Assembly: GCF_028416635.1 (NCBI RefSeq) | Contig: NZ_CP114013.1 | Coordinates: forward strand, 372,001-436,000 | Direction: 5' to 3' | Length of the DNA stretch: 64,000 nt | Source: Baekduia alba | Lineage (GTDB): Bacteria; Actinomycetota; Thermoleophilia; Solirubrobacterales; Solirubrobacteraceae | In this document: positions 8,647-18,052 of the stretch, one piece after another | Position numbering within the stretch: position 1 is the first letter of the stretch | Layout: each line of letters begins with the position of its first letter | Translations under genes and position numbers: made by a program | The notes under the pieces: model-generated | What the model was told of the DNA's origin: nothing | The model's database searches: none | Seen by the model: only the letters and a program-made list of their open reading frames with translations

Positions 8647-9918
8647 GTGCGCGTCCTGATCGTCGGCTCCGGCGGCCGCGAGCACGCGATCGCCAACGCG
8701 CTCGCGCGCTCGCCGCAGCGGCCGGAGCTGCTCGCCGCGCCCGGCAACCCGGGGATCGGCGCGGTCGCGCGCTGCTTCCCGACGCCGGTCGACGACCTCG
8801 ACGGCCTGGTCGCCCTCGCGCGCGGCGAGGCCGTCGACCTCGTCGTCATCGGCCCTGAGGCGCCGCTGGTCGCGGGCCTCGCGGACCGGCTGGAGGCCGC
8901 CGGCATCGCGCACTTCGGCCCGAGCGCCGCGGCCGCGCAGATGGAGGGCTCCAAGGCGTTCGCCAAGGAGGTCATGTCCTCCGCCGGCGTGCCGACGGCC
9001 GACTGGGCCGAGGTCACGAGCGTCGACGAGGGCATGGAGGCGATCGACGGTCGCTACCCGACCGTCATCAAGTTCGACGGGCTGGCCGCGGGCAAGGGCG
9101 TCGTCGTCGCGCCCGACGCGGCGACCGCGCGCGCCGCGCTGACCGAGATGATCGAGGCACGGCGCTTCGGCGACGGCCCGGTCGTGGTCGAGGACTTCCT
9201 CGCGGGCGAGGAGCTCAGCCTCTTCGCGATCTGCGACGGCGAGCGCGCGGTCCCGATGGTCCCCGCGCAGGACTACAAGCGGATCTTCGACGGCGACGAG
9301 GGCCCCAACACCGGCGGCATGGGCGCGTACTCGCCGGTCGTCGGCGCGCCGGACGTCGACGACCTCGTCGCGCAGATCCACCAGCCGGTCGTCGACCTGC
9401 TGCGCGAGCGCGGCACGCCGTTCCACGGCGTCCTCTACGCGGGCCTGATGCTCACCGACGACGGCGCGCAGGTCATCGAGTTCAACGCGCGCTTCGGCGA
9501 TCCCGAGACGCAGGTCGTCCTGCCGCGGCTGCGCAGCGACCTGCTGGAGACGCTGGTCGCGGCGACGCGCCCCGGCGGCCTGGCCTCCTGCGCGCCGATG
9601 GCCTTCGGCGACGACTGGGCCGTGAGCGTGGTGCTCGCGAGCGCCGGCTACCCGCAGTCGTCCTCGTCGGGCGACGTCATCACGGGCCTGGAGGACGCCG
9701 CGCGCGCGGGCGCCGAGGTCATCCACGCGGGCACCGCGCGCGACGCCGCGGGCGCCGTCGTGACCGCCGGCGGGCGGGTCCTGAACGTGACCGCGTTGGG
9801 CCCCGACCCGGCAGCCGCCCGCGAACGTGCCTATGCTGCCGCCGACCTCATCCAGTTCGAAGGACGGCAGCTGCGGCGCGACATCGCGCAGCGCGCCGTG
9901 GAGCGTGTGACCCCATGA
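8647..9918 (+). CDS. purD: Phosphoribosylamine-glycine ligase (GAR synthetase)
   Basis: A 423-residue ATP-grasp enzyme that joins glycine to 5-phosphoribosylamine, step 2 of de novo purine synthesis. Visible motifs are the N-terminal [22 protein letters not shown] at the ATP-grasp entry, [12 protein letters not shown], and the metal/ATP site [18 protein letters not shown]. Length is normal for bacterial PurD. The start is GTG. It overlaps purE by four bases, so the two are translationally coupled. Confidence 0.97.
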
Positions 9919-10394
9919 CCGACCAGCCCCAGCCGACGACCACCGAGCCGCAGACGATGACGCAGCTCGAGGAGGCCGCGACCGACACCGATGCGCCGCG
10001 CGTCGGGATCATCATGGGATCGCAGTCCGACATGGACACCATGGCCGCCGCGGCCAAGGTCCTGGAGGACGCCGGCGTGCGGTCCGAGACCCGCGTCATG
10101 TCCGCGCACCGCGACCCGGAGACGGTCGCCGACTACTGCAAGAACGCGCGGATGCGCGGGCTCAAGGTCATCATCGCGGGCGCCGGCCTGTCCGCCGCGC
10201 TGCCCGGCGTCGCCGCCGCGCACACCGACCTGCCGGTCATCGGCGTGCCGCTGTCCTCGCGGCTGTCGGCCGCCGGCGGCCTCGACGCGCTGCTGTCCGT
10301 CGTCCAGATGCCGCCGGGCGTGCCGGTCGCGGCCGTCGGCCTGGACAACGCGAAGAACGCCGGCCATCTGGCGCTTCGCATCCTCAACGCCTAG
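9915..10394 (+). CDS. purE: 5-(carboxyamino)imidazole ribonucleotide mutase PurE (variant active site)
   Basis: A 159-residue protein with a disordered 30-residue N-terminus and then the PurE core: GIIMGSQSDMDTM, MSAHRDPETV (carrying the first catalytic His) and LPVIGVPLSSR. The segment usually written AGGAAHLPG in class I PurE reads AGLSAALPG here, so the second conserved His is absent. purK, which makes the N5-CAIR substrate, is not in the window. It may therefore be a divergent mutase or may carboxylate AIR directly with CO2; sequence alone does not decide. ATGA overlap with purD. Confidence 0.88.
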   Translation: MTDQPQPTTTEPQTMTQLEEAATDTDAPRVGIIMGSQSDMDTMAAAAKVLEDAGVRSETRVMSAHRDPETVADYCKNARMRGLKVIIAGAGLSAALPGVAAAHTDLPVIGVPLSSRLSAAGGLDALLSVVQMPPGVPVAAVGLDNAKNAGHLALRILNA

Positions 10395-10401
10395 CTCGCT
10401 C

Positions 10402-10407
10402 TAGACT
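10402..10407 (+). promoter_or_regulatory. -10 box TAGACT of purB
   Basis: TAGACT ends eight bases before the GTG start of purB; there is no Shine-Dalgarno sequence, so a leaderless transcript is likely. Confidence 0.5.
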
Positions 10408-10415
10408 CTCGGCGC

Positions 10416-11708
<1,293 letters not shown>

Positions 11709-11747: not shown

Positions 11748-13232
11748 CTACGCCGCCACCAGTGCTTCGACGCCCTCGGCCGCCGCGGCGCTCGCGTTGG
11801 CCTCGCGGGCGCGGAGCGTGACCGCCACCACGACCGCGGCCAGGGCCAGCAGCGCGGCGCCGATGGCGAACGCGACCGTGTAGCCGTGCACGAGCGCCTC
11901 GGCGTGCGTGCCCGTCGCATGGTCGGTCGCCGAGATCGCGAACGTCGACAGGATGGCCAGGCCGAGCGCGCCGCCGATCTGCTGCGACGTGTTGAACAGC
12001 CCGGACGCCAGGCCCTGGTCGTCGGGGTCCACGCCGCCGGTCGCGATCAGCGTCAGCGGCACGAACGCGTGGCCGATGCCCAGCGCGAGCAGCATGATCC
12101 CGGGCAGGAACCCGCCGAGGTAGCCGCTGTCGGGCGTCAGCATCGTCATCCACGCCAGGCCCAGCGCGCCGAGCACGAGCCCGCCGAGCAGGACCGCCTT
12201 GACGCCGAACCGCGCGATCAGGTTCTGCGAGCTGACCGAGCCGGCGATGATCCCGACGGTCATCGGGACGAACGCCGCGCCGGACTCGAGCGCGTTGTAG
12301 CCCTTGATCTGCTGGAAGTACAGCGAGCCGAAGAAGAAGAACGCGTTCATGCCGCTCAGGAGGAACAGCGTCGTCACGTTCGCCGTCGTCAGCGTGCGGG
12401 TCCGGAAGATCGACAGCCGGACCAGCGGCGCGGCACGCCGCGTCTGGACGTAGCCGAAGGCGACCAGCAGCGCGATCGCGCCGGCGCCGAGGCCGAGCGT
12501 CTTGGGGCTGCCCCAGCCGAAGTCCTGCGCCTTGACGATGGCGTAGGTCAGCACCACGAGGCCCGAGGTCACCAGGAAGGCGCCGATCAGGTCGAAGCCG
12601 CCGCGCGTGTCCTCCGCCTTGGACTCGGGGACGAACCGCAGCGCGAGCAGCAGCGTGGCGATGCCGACGGGGACGTTGACGAAGAAGACCCACTCCCACG
12701 ACAGGGCGTCGGTCAGCAGGCCGCCGAGCAGCAGGCCGACGGCGCCGCCGCCGCCGGAGATCGCCGCGAAGGCGCCGAGCGCCTTGGCGCGGTCGGGGCC
12801 CTCGGGGACGGTCGTCGTGATGATCGACAGCGCGGCCGGCGAGACCAGCGCGGCACCCAGGCCCTGGAGCGCGCGGGCGCCCACGAGGAACCCTGGGGAC
12901 GTCGCCAGGCCGTCGAGCAGCGACGCGGCCGTGAACACCGTGATGCCCACGACGAACAGCTTGCGCCGGCCGAGCAGGTCGCCGGCGCGACCACCGAGGA
13001 GCAGGAAGCCGCCGAAGACCAGCATGTAGGCGTTGACGACCCACTGGAGGTCGCCGGCGCTGAACTTCAGGTCGGATTGGATGGAGGGCAGGGCGACGTT
13101 CGTGATCGTCGCGTCGAGGATCACCATGAACTGCGCGAGGCAGACCACGACGACCGTCACGAGCCAGTGGCGCGCGATTGGCGAGTCTTCGGTCACGTGG
13201 GCCTGGGAAGTGGGGGAGGAGAGGTCGGTCAT
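11748..13232 (-). CDS. MFS drug exporter, DHA2 (EmrB/QacA) family, 14 TM
   Basis: A 494-residue protein with about 14 hydrophobic segments. The DHA2 signature ILDATITNVALPSI is in TM1, and RAGDLLGRRKLF (motif A) lies between TM2 and TM3. The family exports drugs or antiseptics with proton antiport; the substrate is unknown. It is divergent from a TetR gene, with four operator-like palindromes between them, so it is almost certainly the target of that repressor. The ATG at 13232 opens a normal cytoplasmic N-terminus; a longer in-frame start would run through the operator region. The pair splits the pur cluster between purB and purC. Confidence 0.93.
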   Translation of the reverse strand: MTDLSSPTSQAHVTEDSPIARHWLVTVVVVCLAQFMVILDATITNVALPSIQSDLKFSAGDLQWVVNAYMLVFGGFLLLGGRAGDLLGRRKLFVVGITVFTAASLLDGLATSPGFLVGARALQGLGAALVSPAALSIITTTVPEGPDRAKALGAFAAISGGGGAVGLLLGGLLTDALSWEWVFFVNVPVGIATLLLALRFVPESKAEDTRGGFDLIGAFLVTSGLVVLTYAIVKAQDFGWGSPKTLGLGAGAIALLVAFGYVQTRRAAPLVRLSIFRTRTLTTANVTTLFLLSGMNAFFFFGSLYFQQIKGYNALESGAAFVPMTVGIIAGSVSSQNLIARFGVKAVLLGGLVLGALGLAWMTMLTPDSGYLGGFLPGIMLLALGIGHAFVPLTLIATGGVDPDDQGLASGLFNTSQQIGGALGLAILSTFAISATDHATGTHAEALVHGYTVAFAIGAALLALAAVVVAVTLRAREANASAAAAEGVEALVAA

Positions 13233-13257: not shown

Positions 13258-13348
13258 GGACCAGTCGGTCCGGATGACCGTAGCACAAGCGAACCAGTCG
13301 GTCCGCTTTTTCGGACCGGTCGGTCCGTCTTTCTGGACCGAGTGGTCC
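13258..13348. promoter_or_regulatory. four phased GGACC-N4-GGTCC operators (TetR sites)
   Basis: Four 14-bp palindromes: 13258-13271, 13291-13304 (GAACC in the left arm), 13313-13326 and 13335-13348. Starts are 33, 22 and 22 bp apart, whole multiples of 11, so all four lie on one face of the helix. They fill the gap between the MFS exporter and TetR genes and end 20 bp before the tetR -10 box. They are most simply read as binding sites for the adjacent TetR repressor acting on both promoters. Confidence 0.8.
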
Positions 13349-13368
13349 GTTTGGGGGGTCGGGACTGC

Positions 13369-13374
13369 TACCGT
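13369..13374 (+). promoter_or_regulatory. -10 box TACCGT of tetR gene
   Basis: TACCGT ends seven bases before the ATG at 13382, placing the expected transcription start at or next to the A of the start codon (leaderless). Confidence 0.55.
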
Positions 13375-13381
13375 GGTTGCC

Positions 13382-14047
13382 ATGACGGTCCCGAATGCCC
13401 TCCCTATGCGCGCCGACGCACGGCGCAACTTGGAGCGCATCCTGGAAGCCGCCCGCGAGGCGTTCGCCGAGCGCGGCCTCGACGTCGGCGTCGAGGAGAT
13501 CGCGCGGCGCGCCGGCGTCGGCAAGGCTACGTTCTTTCGCCGCTTCCCCACCAAGGACGCGCTCGTCCTGGCGGTGCTGGAGGGCTTCGTGGCCGATATG
13601 GAGGTCTCGGCGCAGCGGGCGCTGGAGCTCGAGGACCCGATGGAGAGCCTGCGCGTCTTCATGATGAGCCACATCCGGCTGCAGGCCGAGAACACGGCCT
13701 TCTTCGACGCGGTCGCCGCGCGCTGGAGCGCGGGCCTGAACCCGCCGGTCGAGCTGACCGACCGCATGCTCGCCGCGCTCGCCACCGTGCTGGCGCCCGC
13801 GCAGGCCGCGGGCGTGCTGCGCGAGGGCGTCGAGCCGGGCGACCTGTCGACGATGGTCAAGATGCTCGGCGCGGCGATCCGGCCGATGCCGGGGATGCTG
13901 CTCTGCGAGGCGGCGTGGGACCGCTACCTGGAGCTCGTGCTCGCCGGCATCCGGTCCGGTCAGCCGGCGCTTCCGGGCAGCGCCGCGGATCCGTGCGCGA
14001 TGGCGCGCGAGATCTCCGCGAAGTCGGCCGGATCCGTCACTCACTGA
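13382..14047 (+). CDS. TetR/AcrR family transcriptional regulator
   Basis: A 221-residue repressor. The N-terminal helix-turn-helix spans about residues 12-60, with ILEAAREAFAERGLDVGVEE, then IARRAGVGKATFFRRFPTKDAL. The ligand domain is all-helical and divergent, as usual. It lies divergent from the MFS exporter and presumably represses it, and itself, at the four palindromes between them. The ATG at 13382 was chosen over upstream starts because it is seven bases from a TACCGT -10 box and because upstream codons would translate the operators. Confidence 0.93.
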   Translation: MTVPNALPMRADARRNLERILEAAREAFAERGLDVGVEEIARRAGVGKATFFRRFPTKDALVLAVLEGFVADMEVSAQRALELEDPMESLRVFMMSHIRLQAENTAFFDAVAARWSAGLNPPVELTDRMLAALATVLAPAQAAGVLREGVEPGDLSTMVKMLGAAIRPMPGMLLCEAAWDRYLELVLAGIRSGQPALPGSAADPCAMAREISAKSAGSVTH

Positions 14048-14062: not shown

Positions 14063-14068
14063 TACCTT
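14063..14068 (+). promoter_or_regulatory. -10 box TACCTT of purC
   Basis: TACCTT ends seven bases before GTG 14076. The same spacing recurs at tetR, purH, the antitoxin and the PEP-mutase-like gene. Confidence 0.55.
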
Positions 14069-14075
14069 GGGGCGT

Positions 14076-14960
14076 GTGACCGCCGCCGCCGACCTCGACC
14101 TGCCGCTCGTCGCCAGCGGCAAGGTCCGTGAGATCTACGACCTGGACGATCGCCTTCTCCTGGTCGCCTCCGATCGCATCTCCACCTACGACGTCGTCCA
14201 TCCCAACGGGATCCCGGACAAGGGCAAGGTGCTGACCGGCATCTCCGCCTTCTGGTTCAACAAGACCGGGCACATCGTGCCCAACCACTACATCTCGGCC
14301 ACCGAGGGCGTGCCGGCCGAGGTCCGCGGCCGCGCGATGGCCGTCCAGAAGCTCAAGATGCTGCCGGTCGAGTGCGTCGTGCGCGGCTACATCACCGGCT
14401 CGGGCTGGAAGGACTACCAGGCCACGGGCGCGGTCTCGGGCATCGAGCTGCCGCCCGGGCTGCGCGAGTCCCAGAAGCTGCCGACGCCGATCTTCACGCC
14501 GTCGACCAAGGCCGACGTCGGGCACGACGAGGCGATCGACCTCGCGCAGGCCGGCGAGATCCTGGGCGATCCGGACATGGCCGCGCGCCTGCGCGACGTC
14601 TCGATCGAGTTGTACTCCTTCGCCGCCGAGCAGGCGGCCGAGCGCGGCGTGATCCTGGCCGACACGAAGTTCGAGTTCGGGATCAACAGCGCCGGCGAGC
14701 TGATCCTCGGCGACGAGGCGCTGACGCCGGACTCCTCGCGCTACTGGCCGGCCGAGGGCTACGAGCCCGGCCACGGCCAGCCGTCGTTCGACAAGCAGTA
14801 CGTGCGCGACTGGGCGTCGGGCACGGGCTGGGACAAGGCGCCGCCGGCGCCGGAGATCCCGCAGGACGTCGTCGCGGGCACGCGTGCGAAGTACGTCGAG
14901 GCCTACGAGCTGGTCTGCGGCGAGTCGTTCGACGCCTGGCTGGCGCGGACGTCGGCATGA
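14076..14960 (+). CDS. purC: SAICAR synthetase
   Basis: A 294-residue enzyme of the longer PurC type that couples CAIR to aspartate using ATP. Landmarks: SGKVREIYDLDD near the N-terminus, LLVASDRISTYDVVHP, VECVVRGYITGSGWKDY, and LILGDEALTPDSSRYWP, all standard for PurC. The GTG at 14076 is preferred to the TTG at 14067 because the TTG overlaps the -10 box. It starts a tight run purC-purS-purQ-purL in which every junction overlaps, so the four are translated from one transcript. Confidence 0.97.
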   Translation: MTAAADLDLPLVASGKVREIYDLDDRLLLVASDRISTYDVVHPNGIPDKGKVLTGISAFWFNKTGHIVPNHYISATEGVPAEVRGRAMAVQKLKMLPVECVVRGYITGSGWKDYQATGAVSGIELPPGLRESQKLPTPIFTPSTKADVGHDEAIDLAQAGEILGDPDMAARLRDVSIELYSFAAEQAAERGVILADTKFEFGINSAGELILGDEALTPDSSRYWPAEGYEPGHGQPSFDKQYVRDWASGTGWDKAPPAPEIPQDVVAGTRAKYVEAYELVCGESFDAWLARTSA

Positions 14961-15180
14961 GGGCGCGCGTGCTGATCCGGCCCAAGGCCGGGATCCTCGA
15001 CCCGCAGGGCGTCGCCGTCGAGCGCGCGCTGCCGGCGCTCGGCTTCGCAGGCGTCGCGAACGTCCACGTCGGCCGCCTGGTCGAGCTGGACGTCGAGGAC
15101 GAGGCGCAGCTGGACGACATGTGCCGCCGGCTGCTGGCCAACCCGCTGATCGAGGACTACGAGATCCAGGCGGTCGGCTC

Positions 15181-15184
<4 letters not shown>
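14957..15184 (+). CDS. purS: Phosphoribosylformylglycinamidine synthase subunit PurS
   Basis: A 75-residue alpha/beta protein with the PurS pattern: ARVLIRPKAGILDPQGVAVERAL, NVHVGRLVELDV, and C-terminal LANPLIEDYEI. PurS dimers bridge PurL and PurQ in the three-part FGAM synthase used by Gram-positive bacteria. The ATG overlaps the purC stop (ATGA) and the end overlaps the purQ TTG start (TTGA). Confidence 0.95.
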
Positions 15185-15811
<627 letters not shown>

Positions 15812-15828
<17 letters not shown>

Positions 15829-18052
15829 GGCCGCCGCGGTGAATGCGGCCCGCCCCCCCATCGAGCAGGCCGTCGCGCTCGGCCTGACGCGCGACGAGTA
15901 CCGGATGGTCGTCGACGAGCTCGGCGGGCGCGAGCCCAACGAGGTCGAGCTGGCGATGTTCTCGCTGCTGTGGAGCGAGCACTGCGCCTACAAGCACTCC
16001 AAGAAGCTGCTGCGCACGCTGCCGACCGAGGGGCCGGCCGTCGTCATGGGGCCGGGCGAGAACGCCGGCGCCGTCGACGTCGGCGACGGCTGGGCGGTCG
16101 CGTTCAAGGTCGAGTCGCACAACCACCCGTCCGCGGTCGAGCCCTTCCAGGGCGCGGCGACCGGCGTCGGCGGGATCCTGCGCGACATCTTCGCGCTCGG
16201 CGCGCGGCCGATCGCGGTCCTCGACTCGCTGCGCTTCGGCGAGCCGGACTCCGAGCGCTCGCGCTACCTGCTCGACCGCGCCGTGGCCGGCATCGGCCAC
16301 TACGGCAACTCGATCGGCGTGCCGACCGTGGGCGGCGAGGTCGTCTTCGAGGCGCCCTACGAGACCAACTGCCTCGTCAACGCGATGGCGATCGGCCTGG
16401 CGAAGACCGACGACATGATCCGGTCGGCCGCGGCCGGCGTCGGCAACGTCCTTGTGCTGTTCGGCGCGTCCACCGGCCGCGACGGCATCGGCGGCGCGTC
16501 GGTGCTCGCGTCGACCGAGCTCGACGTGGCCGACGAGTCCAAGCGCCCGTCGGTGCAGGTCGGCGACCCGTTCGAGGAGTCCAAGCTCCTGGAGTGCTCG
16601 CTGGAGCTGCTGGCGTCCGGGTTGTTGGTGGCCTTGCAGGACCTGGGCGCCGCGGGCCTGACGTCCGCCGCCTCCGAGATGGCGGCCAAGGGCGAGGTCG
16701 GCCTCGACCTCGACGTCGCCAAGGTCCCGCTGCGCGAGGCCGACATGGAGCCGTTCGAGATCATGGTGTCCGAGTCGCAGGAGCGCATGCTGTGCGTCTG
16801 CGAGCCGGCCAAGGTCGACGCGGTCCTGGCGCTCTGCGAGAAGTGGGAGGTCAACGGCACCGCGATCGGCACCGTGACCGAGGGCAACCGCTTCCGGATC
16901 CTGCGCGGCGACGAGCTCGTCGGCGACATGCCGGTCACCGGCCTGGTCGACGACGCGCCGCTGTACGACCTGGCGCCCGAGAAGCCGGCGGCGGGCCTGT
17001 ACCCGGCGCCGCCCGTCGTCCTGGGCTTCGAGGCCGACGTGCGCGAGGCGCTCGTCGCGCTGCTGTCGTCGCCGAACCTCGCGTCGCGCCGTCCGCTGTT
17101 CGAGCAGTACGACGCGATCGTCCAGTCGCGCACCGTGCGCCGGCCCGAAGAGGCCGACGCCGCCGTCCTGCACCTGCACGACATGGGTGAGGGCGCGCCG
17201 GCGATCGCGACGTCGATCGACGGCAACGGCCGCCGCGTCGCCGCAGACCCGTACTGGGGCACCGTCGGCAACGTCCTGGAGTGCGCCGCGAACCTCGCGG
17301 CGGTCGGCGCCCAGCCGCTGGGCACGACCAACAACCTCAACTTCGGCAACCCCGAGAAGCCGCACATCGCGTGGCAGCTGACCGAGGCCGTGCGCGGCCT
17401 GGGGGCGGCGTGCCGCGCGCTGGAGGCGCCGATCGTTGGCGGCAACGTGTCGCTCTACAACGAGGGCGCCGGCGGCCCGATCTACCCGACGCCGGTCGTC
17501 GGCATGGTCGGCATCCTGCCCGACGCCACGCGCGCCGGTCGGCTGGCGTTCGCCCGGGACGGCGACGCGATCGCGCTGGTCGGCTTCGACCTCGACGGCG
17601 CGTCGCTCGACGCCAGCGAGCTGTCCAAGCTGCGCGGCGAGGCGCTCCCGGACGGGCTGCCGGAGATCGACGTCGCCGCGGTCGCGCGCACGCTGGACAC
17701 GATCCGCGCCGCCGTTCGCGCCGGCACGCTGACCAGCGCGCACGACATCGCCGAAGGCGGCCTGCTGGTCGCGATCGCCGAGTCGGCGCTGGCCGGCGAC
17801 CGCGGCGCCGCGCTCGACCTCGGCGACGCCGAGGACGTCTGGACCACGCTCTTCGGCGAGCGCTCCGGCGGCTTCGTCGTCTCCGGCCCGCGCGCAACGC
17901 TCGAAGGCCTCGGCGCCGACGGCGTGCCCGTCACGATCCTCGGCACCGTCGGCGGCGACCACCTCGAGGTCTCGGTCTCCAGCCTCACCGAGCGCTGGCC
18001 ACTGGCCGACCTCCACACGGCCTCCGCCGCGCTGGCACCGCTGTTCCCGTAG
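15812..18052 (+). CDS. purL: Phosphoribosylformylglycinamidine synthase subunit PurL (small type)
   Basis: A 746-residue small-type PurL, the synthetase subunit that converts FGAR to FGAM with ATP and ammonia from PurQ. Visible: MFSLLWSEHCAYKHSKK, VAFKVESHNHPSAVEPFQGAATGVGGI (quoted in part; the metal/ATP site), and the second half repeat with LGTTNNLNFGNPEKP. The GTG start is inside purQ with a 17-base overlap, implying coupling. Length is normal. Confidence 0.96.

What the first reader, a model, noticed from the sequence alone, without database searches (positions are those of the whole stretch)
13258..13348. Four TetR-type operators on one helical face
GGACC-N4-GGTCC palindromes start 33, 22 and 22 bp apart, all multiples of 11. 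Most TetR regulators use one or two sites; four in phase suggests cooperative binding and very tight repression of the exporter.
Basis: partly seen in the sequence, partly recalled or inferred. Interest (0 to 1): 0.6.

Follow-up and report, generated by a model that had tools for sequence, protein, structure and literature searches.

The report
Repressor operators stacked every 22 bp
Between a drug-exporter gene and the gene for its likely repressor lie four copies of what looks like the repressor's DNA docking site, and related bacteria have three to five copies at exactly the same step, so the spacing appears to be kept on purpose although nobody has tested what it does.

Summary
Palindromes GGACC-N4-GGTCC start at 13258, 13291 (one base off), 13313 and 13335, 33/22/22 bp apart, in the 149-bp gap between a DHA2 exporter (minus strand) and a tetR (plus strand). 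Sixty simulated windows never gave more than 2 such sites in 91 bp. In six orthologous loci the site number varies (4, 3, 4, 3, 4, 5), but the first step is always 33 bp (6 of 6) and every further step 22 bp (11 of 11), while outside distances drift. An extended -10 (TGNTANNNT) lies between sites 1 and 2 for the exporter and another 19-20 bp beyond the last site for tetR, so the array spans both promoters. The 33-bp step looks like promoter geometry: seven related loci have 32, 34, 37 or 44 there. At 10.5 bp/turn each 22-bp step turns about 34 degrees and the ends lie 120 degrees apart. Cooperativity and tightness are untested. The protein's C-terminal family is SbtR-like, and an SbtR consensus, TGACCCNNKGGTCA, resembles the site. 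Verdict: a real, clade-specific variant of ordinary TetR regulation.

The parts
13258..13271 (.). operator 1, GGACCAGTCGGTCC, over the predicted exporter transcription start
   Evidence: first site in the 6 array loci
13291..13304 (.). operator 2, GAACCAGTCGGTCC (one mismatch), in the predicted exporter -35 region
13313..13326 (.). operator 3, GGACCGGTCGGTCC, the bridging unit whose number varies among orthologs (0, 1 or 2)
13335..13348 (.). operator 4, GGACCGAGTGGTCC, ends 20 bp before the tetR -10 hexamer
13272..13290 (-). 19-bp linker holding the exporter extended -10 (TGCTACGGT, 13285 down to 13277 on the minus strand)
   Evidence: TGNTANNNT in this linker in the 13 of 13 loci given to that call
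13305..13312 (.). 8-bp linker GCTTTTTC
   Evidence: GTCTTTTC in 4 of the 5 other array loci
13327..13334 (.). 8-bp linker GTCTTTCT
13366..13374 (+). tetR extended -10 (TGCTACCGT); the ATG follows 7 nt later, so the mRNA is probably leaderless
   Evidence: TGNTANNNT with its hexamer 19 or 20 bp after the last site in 6 of 6 array loci
13382..14047 (+). TetR-family regulator P0001, 221 aa (TetR_N and SbtR-like C-terminal domain)
11748..13232 (-). DHA2 (EmrB type) MFS exporter P0002, 494 aa
   Evidence: TIGR00711, 241.5 bits, cut-off 230.2

Best explanation
The four palindromes are operators of the adjacent SbtR-like TetR-family repressor. They form one array across two divergent promoters. Dimers on sites 1 and 2 would cover the start and the -35 region of the exporter promoter, and a dimer on site 4 would cover the edge of the -35 region of the leaderless tetR promoter, so the repressor shuts off both genes until a ligand (perhaps a substrate of the exporter) releases it. 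The middle sites are in-register 22-bp units that fill the gap between the two promoters; their number changes by whole units in evolution. Shown: sites, spacing, conservation, promoter placement by motif. Inferred from family knowledge: that P0001 binds them, represses, and is released by a ligand. Inferred and weaker: that the 22-bp step (about two turns) is kept by selection because neighbouring dimers lie on nearly the same side and help each other bind.
For: Divergent pair with a 149-bp gap; TFRs under 200 bp from a divergent neighbour are most likely to regulate it (PMC3511530, passages). P0001's C-terminus matches TetR_C_43 'SbtR-like', and the earlier genomic-SELEX consensus quoted for SbtR, TGACCCNNKGGTCA, has the same GACC-N4-GGTC core (PMC4948773, passages). 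Six array loci keep 33 then 22n: 6 of 6 first steps and 11 of 11 further steps, with TetR identities to the window of 62-74%. The four central bases of sites 1, 2 and last are only 42-53% identical between loci, so the copies are not recent, yet no indel other than whole 22-bp units is seen inside; outside, the predicted exporter ATG to site 1 gap is 25, 34, 34-43 range and 68 (25, 38, 34, 39, 43, 68). Among 110 regions upstream of P0001 homologues only these six have three or more sites, one more (L007) has two, and 103 have fewer than two. Extended -10 in the promoter linker in 13 of 13 loci given. In G081 the exporter is a distant paralogue (51-53% identity) but the TetR (67%) and a five-site array are kept, so array and regulator go together.
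Against: No binding, footprint or expression data. The 22-bp steps could be inherited from unit duplication. Two close relatives (TetR 93% identical) have only three sites, so a fourth is dispensable. At 10.5 bp/turn the array winds 34 degrees per step. With the same motif other steps occur outside the clade, including 18 and 37 (L049). Many P0001 homologues lack the motif: of the ten regions fetched for TetR homology alone, only L068 (exact plus one-mismatch) and L072 (two one-mismatch sites) have a pair near the exporter start. The selection-based SbtR consensus from REPSA, TGACTGGCCAGTCA, fits less well than the older one. The -35 elements are weak, read by eye. Six loci are few, and five of the six are from one genus.
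Confidence: 0.65

Rival explanations
1. The 22-bp step is only a relic of tandem duplication: units were gained and lost by slippage or recombination in whole repeats, and the repressor binds each site independently.
For: Tandem Repeats Finder reports a period-22 array, 2.6 copies. Copy number changes by whole units. The two three-site relatives keep different linkers (GTCTTTTC and GTATTTAC), as if different units were lost.
Against: The centres have diverged and no small indel is seen in 11 of 11 steps, while the exporter-side distance varies from 25 to 68; a mere relic would be expected to drift.
Confidence: 0.35
2. The conserved linkers matter more than the operators' phase: on the exporter strand they read GAAAAGAC and GGAAATAC just upstream of the -35 region and may act as UP-element or bending tracts.
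For: The linker directly upstream of site 2 is GAAAAGAC in 4 of 6 array loci, GAAAAAGC in the window and GTAAATAC in the sixth.
Against: Operator arms in the same units are nearly invariant (3 mismatches in 230 arm positions over 23 sites); in L039 (G081) one linker is GCGTAGAC, not A-rich, with the 22-bp step kept.
Confidence: 0.15
3. The extra middle sites are decoys that soak up repressor and set a sharper or later induction threshold, with no contact between dimers.
For: Middle sites vary in number (0, 1 or 2 between site 2 and the tetR-proximal site) and lie over neither -10.
Against: Decoys need no fixed spacing, yet 22 bp is fixed in 11 of 11 steps.
Confidence: 0.12
4. Another regulator, not P0001, binds the palindromes.
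For: The motif pair flanks exporter promoters in two loci with no P0001 homologue in the DNA fetched (L066, L067), where the contig or the stretch ends at the exporter; and many P0001 homologues lack the motif (103 of 110 upstream regions have fewer than two sites).
Against: Exact 22-bp pairs were found only beside P0001 orthologs (six of 232 genomes; one of 396); the core resembles SbtR's; exporter-tetR operons with more distant P0001 homologues also carry the pair (L057, L063, L064, L065).
Confidence: 0.07

Closest known systems
SbtR of Thermus thermophilus (TetR family)
   Same: C-terminal family TetR_C_43; older consensus TGACCCNNKGGTCA with core GACC-N4-GGTC (PMC4948773, passages)
   Different: outer base is T/A, not G/C; the REPSA consensus of the same paper is TGACTGGCCAGTCA; no array was mentioned in the passages read; NCBIfam gave no match above a cut-off for P0001
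SCO7222 and ActR of Streptomyces coelicolor
   Same: TetR-family repressors of divergent neighbours with three operator-like repeats between the genes (PMC3511530, passages)
   Different: different operator sequences; here 3 to 5 sites on a fixed 22-bp step, which the passages read do not report for them
EilR/eilO of Enterobacter lignolyticus
   Same: repressor with a divergent exporter; one operator in both promoter regions and a second nearer the exporter gene (PMC6127294, passages)
   Different: two 24-bp operators, 36 bp apart by the stated coordinates; no stacked array
DarR, QacR, EthR (TetR-family proteins binding as several dimers)
   Same: several dimers on one regulatory region; the DarR dimer-of-dimers covers one face of the DNA (PMC10636190, passages); QacR and EthR seen only in citing text and titles
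   Different: DarR uses overlapping palindromes, and so, as recalled, does QacR, rather than separate whole operators two turns apart

Membership tests
TetR family of regulators | N-terminal TetR helix-turn-helix | tested here: met
   PF00440, 62.7 bits, cut-off 24
TetR family of regulators | C-terminal domain of a known TetR type | tested here: met
   PF21597 TetR_C_43, 34.9 bits, cut-off 27
TetR family of regulators | palindromes between own gene and a divergent neighbour under 200 bp away | tested here: met
   149-bp gap
TetR family of regulators | dimer binds the palindromes and is released by a ligand | not testable with these tools
   needs purified protein
SbtR-like regulators | C-terminal domain TetR_C_43 | tested here: met
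SbtR-like regulators | operator TGACC-N4-GGTCA | tested here: not met
   same core and gap, but outer base G/C in place of T/A; so it is called SbtR-like by domain only
Cooperative multi-dimer TetR repressors | cooperative binding of two or more dimers | not testable with these tools
   no binding assay
Helically phased operator arrays | whole-turn spacing | tested here: inconclusive
   22-bp step fixed in 11 of 11, but 34 degrees off per step at 10.5 bp/turn
DHA2 MFS exporters | EmrB-type model above its cut-off | tested here: met
   TIGR00711, 241.5 bits, cut-off 230.2

The most novel reading that the evidence does not exclude
The array is an expandable repressor lattice: TetR-type dimers sit shoulder to shoulder every 22 bp and make a short, slightly winding filament that ties two divergent promoters together, and evolution tunes how sharply and tightly the pair switches by adding or removing whole 22-bp units.
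Probability: 0.25. Interest if true: 0.6.

Novelty: new variant of a known kind. Interest (0 to 1): 0.42.

Why it matters
Natural loci with 3, 4 and 5 copies of one operator at one fixed step, with orthologous repressors, are a ready-made series for asking how operator number and helical phase set leakiness and steepness in TetR-type switches, which are widely used in synthetic biology. If the lattice reading is true it would be a modular way of tuning a repressor that can be read from sequence.

Tried and rejected
Family-wide phasing. Regions upstream of 110 TetR homologues (30 loci, 80; 107 distinct) were scanned for repeated palindromes. 43 of 107, the array loci included, had a strict pair, against a mean of 2.2 (maximum 4) in 30 block shuffles, so two related operators are common. 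The 55 spacings from loci under 60% identity showed only weak periodicity (Rayleigh p about 0.02 at 11.0 bp and 0.10 at 10.5 bp; several per locus, not independent; 33 or 44 in 6 of 39 spacings between 26 and 46, 3.7 expected). Not taken as support. Some pairs, such as the 15-bp repeats of L082, look like GC-rich coding repeats by eye; they were left in the counts.

Loci left out. Of the 26 loci L031-L056 I gave 12 to (the six array loci and L042-L046, L049), plus L068. Left out were loci with weak, partial or no P0001/P0002 homology, among them pairs at 28 (L040), 30 (L041), 33 (L050), 39 (L053) and 40 bp (L047), and others that look like repeats in coding sequence. L072, with two one-mismatch sites 34 bp apart, was also not given.

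A regulon in the own genome. CGGACC-N4-GGTCCG occurs 5 times, two of them in this array, against 4 for the reversed control: no evidence of other targets.

Read-through control of purC from the tetR promoter: not needed, because a -10-like TACCTT, TACCGT or TACTTT lies just before the purC start in 5 of 6 loci; read-through is not excluded.

Named orthologs. The organism of the window is therefore not named; Solirubrobacter loci are among the best hits.

Papers. Passages of PMC5895659 and PMC2723105 held nothing on stacked whole operators. Structure prediction was not run; it would not give contacts between dimers on DNA.

Full report
Observation. The window holds GGACC-N4-GGTCC at 13258, 13291 (GAACC, one mismatch), 13313 and 13335. 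The exact motif occurs 3 times against 0.26 expected. With one mismatch allowed, 60 simulated windows never had more than two sites within 91 bp, while this place has four. Genome-wide the motif is not enriched, 43 places against 58 for its reversed control.

Setting. The sites lie in the 149 bp between a 494-aa DHA2 exporter on the minus strand (TIGR00711 above cut-off) and a 221-aa TetR-family protein on the plus strand (PF00440 and the SbtR-like PF21597). The five nearest solved structures by sequence are TetR-family proteins with no function in their names. The genomic-SELEX consensus quoted for SbtR, TGACCCNNKGGTCA, has the same core and gap as these palindromes; the newer consensus of that paper, TGACTGGCCAGTCA, fits less well (PMC4948773, passages only). 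This is moderate independent support for pairing the repressor with the sites.

Comparative test. A search of 232 genomes of the order with P0001 gave 131 with a match at E 1e-20 or better; loci were fetched for 30 matches. Six loci (the window, G060, G063, G064, G065, G081; TetR identity of the other five to the window 62-74%) carry the array, with 4, 3, 4, 3, 4 and 5 sites. The first step is 33 bp in 6 of 6; further steps are 22 bp in 11 of 11. Of the 23 sites, three have one arm mismatch, 3 in 230 arm positions. The next homologue, G194 at 45%, has two sites 44 bp apart, one with a mismatch; the other 23 of the 30 fetched loci show at most one site with up to two mismatches in 260 bp upstream. 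Over all 110 homologues examined, only these seven have two or more sites with at most one mismatch in 300 bp upstream. An exact-pair search (gap up to 30 bp) matched 22 of 232 genomes of the order, the reversed control 2; 22-bp pairs were in the six array genomes only. In 396 genomes drawn from the phylum 7 matched, the reversed control 4; the only 22-bp pair was the window's own.

Is the spacing kept? The four central bases of orthologous sites (first, second and last) are only 42-53% identical, so the repeats are old. Yet inside the array no length change other than whole 22-bp units is seen. Outside it, the distance from the predicted exporter start codon to site 1 is 25, 38, 34, 39, 43 and 68. 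From the last site to the tetR -10 hexamer it is 20, 19 or 20 in all six. The two closest relatives, G060 and G064 (TetR 93% identical), both have three sites but different linkers, which suggests separate losses of one unit; this rests on 8 bases and is not strong.

Promoters. Read on the exporter strand, the linker between sites 2 and 1 holds TGNTANNNT in 13 of the 13 loci I gave: the six with the array, six relatives with an exporter homologue and the motif pair, and G194. None of the eleven 22-bp linkers has it. Loci with weak or no homology were not given; they are listed under what was tried. In the seven outside the clade the pair is 32, 32, 32, 32, 34, 37 and 44 bp apart, so the 33-bp step most simply reflects one site over the start and one over the -35 region, with a few bases of freedom. 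On the other side each of the six loci has TGNTANNNT with its hexamer 19-20 bp after the last site; in the window the tetR ATG follows 7 nt after it, so a leaderless message is likely. Site 4 then touches the tetR -35 region. Thus the array serves both promoters; the middle units, 0 to 2 of them, bridge the two.

Helical face. At 11.0 bp per turn all four are in phase. At 10.5 they wind: 34 degrees for 22 bp, 51 for 33, 120 over the full 77 bp. Neighbours are on nearly the same side, the ends are not. That TetR-type binding can unwind DNA somewhat is recalled, not tested here.

How it most likely works. The repressor occupies the sites, blocks the exporter at start and -35, blocks its own gene at the -35, and is released by a ligand. 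The first part is well supported by context; TFRs less than 200 bp from a divergent gene are most likely to regulate it (PMC3511530, passages). Cooperation between dimers two turns apart is plausible and would explain the fixed step, but duplication history explains much of it too. I put cooperation somewhat below even odds.

Against the reading. Most distant P0001 homologues do not carry the motif: 103 of 110 upstream regions have fewer than two sites. Several of these are exporter-tetR operons whose promoter lies further off; of the ten regions fetched for TetR homology alone, two (L068, L072) have a pair near the exporter start, both only with a mismatch allowed. So the operator sequence is a property of a sub-group.

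What is known. Three operator-like repeats between divergent genes are known (SCO7222, ActR; PMC3511530, passages), two in EilR loci (PMC6127294, passages), and dimer-of-dimers binding in DarR (PMC10636190, passages). No paper describing a TetR operator stack on a fixed 22-bp step came up in ten searches (open-access library only, listings read, passages of six papers), which is a limited search.

Surroundings. The exporter-tetR pair sits between purB and purC. tetR is followed by purC in 6 of 6 array loci, and G061 of the same genus has purE-purB-purC without it. In G081 the exporter is a distant paralogue while TetR and array are kept.

Noticed in passing
window 8647-11708 and 14067-18052: The exporter-tetR pair splits a purine gene cluster (purD, purE, purB on one side, purC, purS, purQ, purL on the other; names recalled from the sequences, no family search run on them). 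The tetR-purC neighbourhood is kept in 6 of 6 array loci; G061 has purB next to purC.
   Followed up: partly
window 14063-14078: purC seems to have its own leaderless promoter (TACCTT just before GTG) in the tetR-purC gap; a similar motif is in 5 of 6 loci.
   Followed up: partly
L057 3490-3558: G163 exporter-tetR operon with three GGACC sites stepped 18 and 37 bp, a different stacking with the same motif.
   Followed up: no
L029, about 155 to 65 bp before its tetR: A paralogous regulator with three CGGAG...CTCC-type palindromes at 43 and 32 bp steps: multiple operators recur with other motifs.
   Followed up: no
L005 and L039 (G081): Orthologous TetR and five-site array next to an exporter only 51-53% identical to the window's, as if the exporter had been exchanged.
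   Followed up: partly
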